In this document: positions 2,463 through 20,803 of the stretch, piece by piece | Position numbering within the stretch: position 1 is the stretch's first letter | Layout: every line of letters begins with the position of its first letter | DNA from: a virus | Virus record (IMG/VR): IMGVR_UViG_3300009181_000225 | Span: 1 to 31,833 of that record | Direction: 5' to 3' (one strand) | DNA length: 31,833 nucleotides | Made by a program: the position numbers and the translations under genes | Notes under the pieces: generated by a model | What the model was told of the DNA's origin: nothing | The model's input: only the letters and a program-made list of their open reading frames with translations | Database searches by the model: none

Positions 2463-2948
2463 TTAAAAAACTTGTATATCGTTATTGCTAATTAGTAATT
2501 CTTGTCGTAGCTCTTCCCTAACTTCCTCTAAAATCTTGCCTATTTTATTATCGCCTTCGCCATTATATACGCCCCAAAATCTATCATTAAACCTGTTATT
2601 CATAACTAACTTCATAACGCCTGTTTTTAATAATAAATCTCCTAAAAAAGGATTTTGAAACTTTTCTTTAATTAATACTTTCATAATATCGACCTTAATA
2701 TCAGGCCAATCATTTTGCAATTGAAGACATCGTCCCATTTTTTTTGCCTCCAATGGTGTTGCAGCGTTTCTAATTATTTTCCTTAATTTATCATCGACTG
2801 TTTTGGCGGCCTGGTATGCATGTTCTACGGTCGGGTATAACATACCTTCGAAACGAATAGTTGATTGATAAAAATTTGATAAGAACTCATAACCAGCTTC
2901 TTTCGTGAAACGATCGATTACCTTTGAGTTTTCGTCTTTTTGTTCCAT
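2463..2948 (-). CDS. NADAR-family N-glycosidase (YbiA-like)
   Basis: NADAR proteins cleave N-glycosidic bonds of ADP-ribose-like or riboflavin-pathway intermediates; some remove ADP-ribose from guanine in nucleic acid. The 161-aa protein shows the family pattern in order: EFLSNFYQSTIRFEGMLYPT, VEHAYQAAKT, AATPLEAKKMGR, then MKVLIKEKFQNP, LLLKTG and RFWGVYNGEGDNKIGKIL near the C-terminus. Length and motif spacing are normal, so it is probably active. It shares the strand and a 33-bp gap with the PTH2 gene. In phages the family is thought to act in NAD/ADP-ribose conflicts, for example against DarT-type toxins; that role here is inference. Confidence 0.88.
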   Translation of the reverse strand: MEQKDENSKVIDRFTKEAGYEFLSNFYQSTIRFEGMLYPTVEHAYQAAKTVDDKLRKIIRNAATPLEAKKMGRCLQLQNDWPDIKVDIMKVLIKEKFQNPFLGDLLLKTGVMKLVMNNRFNDRFWGVYNGEGDNKIGKILEEVREELRQELLISNNDIQVF

Positions 2949-20272: not shown

Positions 20273-20494
20273 TCATGTCACAATGCGTAGGTATCCACTG
20301 TTTTGAGTATCGCCATCCTCCACCTCGACATCATACATGTTTAAAACGCCCCTTGCGATGCGCTTCATTGCAGTGGAGTATCCAGTAATAATATGTAGCT
20401 CAAGCTTACCCCAATTATCATTTATGAATTGATGTACCAGCTCCGGCACGTCTTCATGACTTACTCCGTGCAAATCTAACTTTGGAGGTTTCAT
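20273..20494 (-). CDS. Smr-domain-like protein, 73 aa
   Basis: The pattern KLDLHGVSHEDVPELVHQFI, LELHIITGYSTAMKRIARGV and SGYLRIVT follows the Smr (small MutS-related) domain: LDLHG motif, IITG motif, then a final Gly-x-Leu strand. The usual GKG after IIT is GYS here. Smr domains bind branched or structured nucleic acid, and some nick DNA or cut mRNA on stalled ribosomes. Single-domain length suits a phage version. It is adjacent to the intron-containing tRNA gene. Confidence 0.65.
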   Translation of the reverse strand: MKPPKLDLHGVSHEDVPELVHQFINDNWGKLELHIITGYSTAMKRIARGVLNMYDVEVEDGDTQNSGYLRIVT

Positions 20495-20532: not shown

Positions 20533-20803
20533 CTCCGACTCCTGGGGTCGAACCAGGGACCAACGCATTACTTTACCACTTCAGTTTTTACTGCCGATAT
20601 TATCGTTTGTGGTCTGGACTATCCCATCATCCGTTCTGGATGGACTCATTATAGTCTCTGCACCTCCCGGTTTCCCGGTTTGGCTCAGGATTGCCATGCC
20701 TATTTGGCGAAGGGTTCCCTGAATTTCGAGTCTTTTCATCCAGGAATTCCTTCCTGGCGCTGCCTACGACAGTGCGTCGCTCTACCAACTGAGCTAAGTC
20801 GGA
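20533..20803 (-). tRNA. tRNA-Asn(GUU) interrupted by a group I intron
   Basis: Exon 1 (20769-20803, 35 nt) runs from TCCGACT through the D-arm (GCTC-AGTTGGTA-GAGC) to CTGT of the anticodon loop. Exon 2 (20533-20570, 38 nt) begins TAA and completes the anticodon stem (ACGCA/TGCGT), the variable loop TGGTC, the T-arm CCTGG-TTCGACC-CCAGG and the acceptor AGTCGGA plus discriminator G. Joined, the loop reads CTGTTAA, giving anticodon GUU for Asn, and every stem pairs perfectly. CCA is not encoded, so a CCA-adding enzyme is needed. Without splicing the tRNA cannot form. Confidence 0.92.
20571..20768 (-). ncRNA. Group I intron, 198 nt, IC3-like
   Basis: The intron lies between anticodon bases 35 and 36. 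Exon 1 ends in U and the intron ends in G, as group I splicing requires. P1 pairs exon GCACUGU with intron GCAGCGC, with the U-G wobble at the splice site and one mismatch. P2 is CCAGGAA/TTCCTGG. The conserved core reads GGCAATCCTGAGCCAA (Q region), GTGCAGAGACTAT (R region) and GGGATAGTCC (S region). P3 pairs GACTC/GAGTC and P7 GACTAT/ATAGTC. It contains no endonuclease frame. The core closely resembles the tRNA-Leu(UAA) introns of cyanobacteria and chloroplasts. Confidence 0.92.

What the first reader, a model, noticed from the sequence alone, without database searches (positions are those of the whole stretch)
20533..20803. Group I intron inside a phage tRNA-Asn(GUU) gene
Exons join to a perfect tRNA-Asn. 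The 198-nt insert has P1 with the U-G splice wobble, a terminal G, and P3, P7, Q, R and S elements close to those of cyanobacterial and plastid tRNA-Leu introns. It splits the anticodon between bases 35 and 36. Known bacterial tRNA introns sit in Leu, Ile, Arg and fMet genes; I know of none in a phage tRNA-Asn. There is no endonuclease, so spread must be passive or in trans. The intron could gate tRNA supply by splicing.
Basis: partly seen in the sequence, partly recalled or inferred. Interest (0 to 1): 0.86.

Follow-up and report, generated by a model that had tools for sequence, protein, structure and literature searches.

The report
Self-splicing intron splits phage tRNA-Asn
A bacterial virus carries a tRNA-Asn gene cut in the middle of its anticodon by a small self-splicing RNA, and a database survey shows that such split tRNA genes are common in phages, although the literature searched here does not describe them and standard tRNA finders skip them.

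Summary
On the minus strand, exons 20769-20803 and 20533-20570 flank a 198-nt insert and join into a perfect tRNA-Asn(GUU), split between U35 and U36. The insert is a complete small group I intron: Rfam Intron_gpI 49.8 bits, E 5.8e-10, a hair under the 50-bit cut-off. Helices P1-P9, the U.G splice wobble and the terminal G are present. In nine related phage introns 36 of 56 pairs show double-sided changes and 98% of cells pair. A second assembly of the same virus has the identical intron.

It is not unique. A capped scan of viral contigs found 119 intron-split tRNA genes (Asn, Met/Ile, Arg, Lys, Thr and others), the intron's guide tuned to the anticodon loop. Named phages have them too (Klebsiella Muenster, Agrobacterium Atu_ph07, the 735-kb huge phage), unlabelled. 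At least 95 bacterial or archaeal contigs carry introns at the same tRNA-Asn site. A 2014 review says phage introns lie only in protein genes.

Best explanation: a self-splicing, endonuclease-less intron, inherited with the tRNA gene, that releases functional tRNA-Asn. Gating of tRNA supply has no support. Splicing itself is inferred, not shown.

The parts
20769..20803 (-). 5' exon of tRNA-Asn(GUU): acceptor 5' strand, D arm, anticodon stem 5' strand, loop bases 32-35 (CUGU)
20571..20768 (-). 198-nt group I intron, begins C, ends G (omega G at 20571)
   Evidence: Rfam Intron_gpI 49.8 bits E 5.8e-10; covariation of 9 relatives
20533..20570 (-). 3' exon: U36 A37 A38, anticodon stem 3' strand, T arm, acceptor 3' strand, discriminator G; no CCA encoded
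20769..20772 (-). P1 exon strand CUGU, last U at the 5' splice site
   Evidence: pairs with the GCAG guide (U.G wobble); GCAG near the 5' end in all 26 phage Asn introns, 24 distinct
20760..20763 (-). internal guide sequence GCAG (P1 3' strand)
20740..20757 (-). P2 hairpin, 7 bp, GGAA (GNRA) loop
   Evidence: 7 of 7 pairs with double-sided changes
20728..20732 (-). P3 5' strand GACUC
   Evidence: pseudoknotted with 20643-20647; 5 of 5 pairs covary
20662..20723 (-). P4-P5-P6 domain, P6a capped by a GAAA loop
20652..20656 (-). P7 5' strand GACUA (R element)
   Evidence: invariant
20643..20647 (-). P3 3' strand GAGUC
20628..20642 (-). P8 hairpin
   Evidence: 4 of 5 pairs covary
20617..20621 (-). 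P7 3' strand UAGUC (S element)
   Evidence: invariant
20575..20613 (-). P9 with two nested hairpins
20273..20494 (-). neighbouring downstream ORF, Smr-like (below Pfam cut-off); context only
   Evidence: 19.4 bits, cut-off 25.7

Best explanation
The gene is a phage tRNA-Asn(GUU) gene interrupted by a compact, endonuclease-less group I intron. After transcription the intron folds, its guide GCAG pairs with the anticodon-loop bases CUGU, an external guanosine bound at P7 attacks after U35, and the freed U35 then attacks after the terminal G. This joins U35 to U36 and restores the anticodon GUU. Host RNase P and 3' processing, with CCA added by enzyme because none is encoded, would finish the tRNA. 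In this phage lineage the intron is inherited with the tRNA gene as a nearly neutral passenger. It belongs to a large phage and bacterial population of tRNA introns, some of which encode homing endonucleases. Shown: anatomy, covariation, conservation, distribution. Inferred: splicing in vivo, neutrality, past spread by homing.
For: tRNA-Asn complete after joining. Group I match over the full model. In 9 phage Asn introns 98.1% of pair cells pair and 36 of 56 pairs have double-sided changes, including the P3 pseudoknot (5 of 5); covariation 0.503 against 0.172 shuffled, 0 of 500. Over 24 distinct phage Asn genes the exons keep 119/120 anticodon-stem and 168/168 acceptor pairs across 13 and 14 different stem sequences, so the spliced tRNA is under selection. 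The guide fits its own exon better than other exons across insertion classes: mean 2.45 against 1.42 +/- 0.10, 0 of 2000 shuffles. The gene lies in the same order, tRNA-sigma factor-ligase, in relative L236, at 80% nucleotide identity for tRNA plus intron and 64-68% for the ligase.
Against: Rfam score 0.2 bits under the gathering cut-off. No RNA data. An exact intron-less allele in a close relative was not found; nearest relatives lack the tRNA in the stretches read, and intact copies of a related phage's tRNA-Asn (L387, L388) lie in phages with no clear synteny.
Confidence: 0.92

Rival explanations
1. The intron is retained because it regulates or protects the phage tRNA: splicing gates tRNA supply, or the unspliced precursor hides the anticodon loop from host anticodon nucleases.
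For: The intron splits the anticodon itself and is conserved within a phage lineage. Introns recur in anticodon loops of many phage tRNAs.
Against: Anticodon-loop insertion is also normal for bacterial tRNA introns where no such role is known. No ligand domain, nuclease or linked defence gene was seen. Not tested.
Confidence: 0.05
2. A degenerate, non-splicing intron remnant in a dead tRNA gene.
For: Rfam score just under the cut-off; no endonuclease.
Against: All helices intact, compensatory changes throughout, exons almost perfectly paired.
Confidence: 0.03
3. Recent capture of an interrupted host tRNA-Asn gene, so that the gene is simply a bacterial one on a phage.
For: The same site is occupied in at least 95 bacterial or archaeal contigs. 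One origin of all Asn introns is not rejected (AU p 0.446).
Against: The window intron's nearest kin are phage Asn introns (81% identity) and the best exon matches are phage. The intron is shared in synteny with a distant phage. A remote bacterial origin remains open.
Confidence: 0.1

Closest known systems
Bacterial and plastid tRNA group I introns (cyanobacterial tRNA-Leu(UAA), tRNA-fMet; Ile2(CAU) of Acidovorax/Burkholderia)
   Same: Small group I intron in the anticodon loop of a tRNA, guide pairs with anticodon-loop bases, exons pair in the anticodon stem
   Different: Host gene is tRNA-Asn, position 35/36, and the carrier is a phage
Phage group I introns (T4 td/nrdB/nrdD, SPO1, Twort)
   Same: Group I intron on a phage genome
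   Different: [quoted passage not shown] this one is in a tRNA
tRNA-Asn(GUU) introns of candidate-phyla bacteria, Omnitrophota and Pacearchaeota (found here)
   Same: Same gene, same position 35/36, mostly the same GCAG guide
   Different: Cellular contigs; ~500-nt versions encode HNH-like proteins; separate branches in the quick tree
Synechocystis tRNA-fMet intron with I-Ssp6803I
   Same: tRNA anticodon-loop intron; phage tRNA-Lys introns L222/L197 encode the same nuclease type (PDDEXK_5; L222 has a weak match to 2OST)
   Different: The window intron has no ORF

Membership tests
Group I catalytic intron (RF00028) | P3-P7-P8 pseudoknotted core with R and S elements | tested here: met
   P3 covaries at 5 of 5 pairs, P7 invariant and paired, P8 covaries
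Group I catalytic intron (RF00028) | P1 with U.G wobble at the 5' splice site; intron ends in G | tested here: met
Group I catalytic intron (RF00028) | P4-P6 domain | tested here: met
Group I catalytic intron (RF00028) | Score at or above Rfam gathering cut-off (a curation threshold, not a biological feature) | tested here: inconclusive
   49.8 vs 50 bits, E 5.8e-10; 8 of 10 related records score 51-80 bits. The model is weak on this group: it finds 10 of 18 sampled phage loci at E<=0.001
Group I catalytic intron (RF00028) | Guanosine-initiated self-splicing | not testable with these tools
   needs an RNA experiment
Group IC3 subgroup (bacterial tRNA introns) | Subgroup-specific peripheral features | not tested
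   no subgroup models on hand; size and host gene are consistent
tRNA-Asn gene | Joined exons give a standard cloverleaf with anticodon GUU | tested here: met
   acceptor 7/7, D 4/4, anticodon stem 5/5
Mobile (homing) group I intron | Encodes a homing endonuclease | tested here: not met
   198-nt intron without ORF; no HNH match on either contig of the virus
Archaeal BHB tRNA intron | Bulge-helix-bulge at the junctions | not tested
   site is 35/36 rather than the usual 37/38, and a complete group I core is present instead

The most novel reading that the evidence does not exclude
Splitting the anticodon is useful to phages: the unspliced precursor would escape host anticodon nucleases, or splicing would time the supply of tRNA, so that tRNA introns are kept as a regulatory or anti-defence trait in many large phages and not merely tolerated.
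Probability: 0.06. Interest if true: 0.88.

Novelty: new variant of a known kind. Interest (0 to 1): 0.64.

Why it matters
A 2014 review places phage group I introns only in protein genes. Here phage tRNA genes turn out to be a frequent home, across several anticodons, in isolated phages too, and they are easily missed: the tRNAscan-SE 2.0 paper says it was not designed to detect group I introns in tRNAs, and phage tRNA surveys use it. Phage tRNA inventories are therefore likely incomplete. Natural exon-guide pairs tuned to different anticodon loops give a ready data set for how group I introns retarget.

Tried and rejected
A first pattern scan was too loose: it mostly caught intact tRNAs. Rfam at gathering threshold returned nothing, so absence above cut-off would have misled. 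I first read the quick intron tree (28 changes of site) as showing repeated jumps into tRNA-Asn. AU tests do not reject one clade of phage Asn introns (p 0.73), one clade of all Asn introns (p 0.45) or one clade of all phage introns (p 0.76), so jumping between tRNAs is not shown. A search for the window's own intron-less allele found none. Ligase and HAD-protein relatives carry no tRNA-Asn in the stretches read, so no syntenic empty site was shown. ARAGORN's isotype calls for many phage introns (SeC, Stop, Phe) were misplacements, corrected by requiring U before and G at the end of the intron. Anticodon identity stays ambiguous for a few Lys/Asn/Thr cases and for the class-I UAA tRNAs. A short 'intron' reported in lactococcal phage L47 tRNA-Ser (58 bp) and 22-49 nt ones in a cyanobacterial survey are too short for group I and were not counted as precedents.

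Full report
What is there. The window is a whole IMG/VR virus record. On its minus strand a 271-nt gene at 20803-20533 consists of two tRNA halves around a 198-nt insert. Default ARAGORN sees nothing; with introns allowed it reports tRNA-Asn(gtt) with an intron of 198 nt. The joined exons form a full cloverleaf: acceptor 7/7, D stem 4/4, anticodon stem 5/5, loop CUGUUAA. The insert lies between U35 and U36, and the placement is unique given U before and G at the end of the intron. No CCA is encoded.

It is a group I intron. Rfam's model matches end to end at 49.8 bits, E 5.8e-10 in the whole window, 0.2 bits below the curated cut-off. I drew the full structure by hand: P1 (CUGU with GCAG, U.G at the splice site), P2 with a GNRA loop, P3, P4, P5, P6 with a GAAA-capped P6a, P7, P8, P9 with two hairpins, terminal G. 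Aligned with eight other phage tRNA-Asn introns, 98.1% of the 483 pair cells are standard pairs, 36 of 56 pairs change on both sides, and the covariation score is 0.503 against 0.172 for shuffles (0 of 500) and under 0.1 when the partners are slid. P3, whose strands form the pseudoknot, covaries at all five pairs. The structure was drawn on the window sequence, which favours it over slid versions in the share of cells paired; the double-sided changes are the stronger evidence.

It is real and shared. A 65.8-kb contig from another metagenome overlaps the window at 99.97% over 21,781 bp and carries the identical intron. That contig has a protein matching a baseplate wedge family, and the window a DNA ligase and a sigma factor, so this is most likely a tailed phage. 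No other tRNA gene was found on the window or on the 60 kb read of that contig. In a more distant phage (L236) the same order tRNA-Asn with intron, sigma factor, ligase is kept, with the tRNA plus intron at 80% identity and the ligase at 64-68%.

How widespread. Of 124 matches in the loci held (including the window and its sister contig), 119 resolve into a tRNA split in the anticodon loop: 26 Asn after 35 (24 distinct introns), 31 CAU (after 33 or 36), 19 Arg(UCU), 23 class-I tRNAs with UAA, 14 Lys, 3 Thr, 2 UCA, 1 Ile(UAU). All 26 phage Asn introns have GCAG near their 5' end, CAU-36 introns have GUG, CAU-33 introns mostly GGU(C), Lys-35 introns GGAG or GAAG. Across 96 distinct genes the guide fits its own exon (mean 2.45) far better than exons dealt at random (1.42 +/- 0.10; 0 of 2000). 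These are related sequences, so the number is not a probability, but the exon-guide match follows the insertion class.

Named phages. Klebsiella phage Muenster has a 231-nt intron (104 bits) inside a CAU tRNA. The 735-kb huge phage and Agrobacterium phage Atu_ph07 have introns in tRNA-Leu(UAA) by ARAGORN, and the 595-kb huge phage has one with an ORF, read by eye. A Microcoleus phage has one in tRNA-Arg(CCU), deposited as a 286-nt tRNA-Arg. The first four carry no intron annotation; Atu_ph07 has a hypothetical protein drawn over the intron's end.

Cellular genomes. One scan of cellular contigs, restricted to a G before UAA, again hit its limit. Of 117 loci 95 are tRNA-Asn split after 35, mostly candidate-phyla bacteria and Omnitrophota, some Pacearchaeota, Bacteroidota and others; 5 are Thr and 4 Lys. 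GCAG occurs in the first 40 nt in 70 of 95 (shuffled rate 0.18); many of the others are ~500-nt introns with an HNH-like ORF right after the splice site. Most are metagenome bins, so single assignments, the archaeal ones above all, may be wrong.

Endonucleases. Phage tRNA introns of 600-760 nt encode HNH_3 proteins (Arg, UAA) or PDDEXK_5 proteins (Lys), one of the latter with a weak match (E 0.007) to 2OST, which I know as I-Ssp6803I, the enzyme of the Synechocystis tRNA-fMet intron. The window intron has none.

Evolution. In a quick tree of 166 introns the window falls among phage Asn introns. AU tests reject neither a single phage clade nor a single Asn clade, so I claim neither transfer from bacteria nor jumps between tRNAs.

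Literature. A 2014 review states that all phage introns then known lay in protein genes in spite of many phage tRNA genes (PMC3984707). tRNAscan-SE 2.0 was not designed to detect group I introns (PMC8450103), and it was used for huge phages and Atu_ph07 (PMC7162821, PMC6102473), whose papers never mention introns. [quoted passage not shown] Ten searches found no report of a phage tRNA group I intron or of a tRNA-Asn one; most subscription papers and preprints are not covered.

Verdict. The feature is a new variant of a known kind: group I tRNA introns, here in phage tRNA genes. It is one of many, which lowers the surprise of this one and raises that of the class. Splicing is very likely but unproven; gating or protection is speculation.

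Noticed in passing
L003 1428-1734 (Klebsiella phage Muenster, MT708547): tRNA(CAU) gene with a 231-nt group I intron (104 bits), unannotated; similar intron sequence in KP13-7, RCIP0023, OU509535.
   Followed up: partly
L246 1253-1614 (Agrobacterium phage Atu_ph07); L244 1420-1710 (735-kb phage LR756501): tRNA-Leu(UAA) split by group I introns, absent from annotation or overlaid by a hypothetical protein.
   Followed up: partly
L222, L197: Phage tRNA-Lys introns encode PDDEXK_5 endonucleases of the kind known from the cyanobacterial tRNA-fMet intron.
   Followed up: partly
L252, L255, L308: tRNA-Asn introns in contigs binned as Pacearchaeota (and many more in candidate-phyla bacteria); group I introns in archaeal tRNA genes would be notable if the bins are right.
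   Followed up: no
L138, L153, L165 and about 20 more phage contigs: A class-I (short variable loop) tRNA with anticodon UAA carrying an intron; its amino-acid identity is unclear.
   Followed up: no
L184 3526-5058: One 280-kb phage contig with three intron-split tRNA genes (Arg, Leu and probably Lys) beside an intact tRNA-Asn.
   Followed up: no
L002 2234-2414 and 2943-3123: Two group I introns within 900 bp in the capsid region of a small marine autographivirus, neither annotated.
   Followed up: no
window 2463-2948 (-): NADAR-domain protein (Pfam PF08719), possibly NAD or ADP-ribose related.
   Followed up: no
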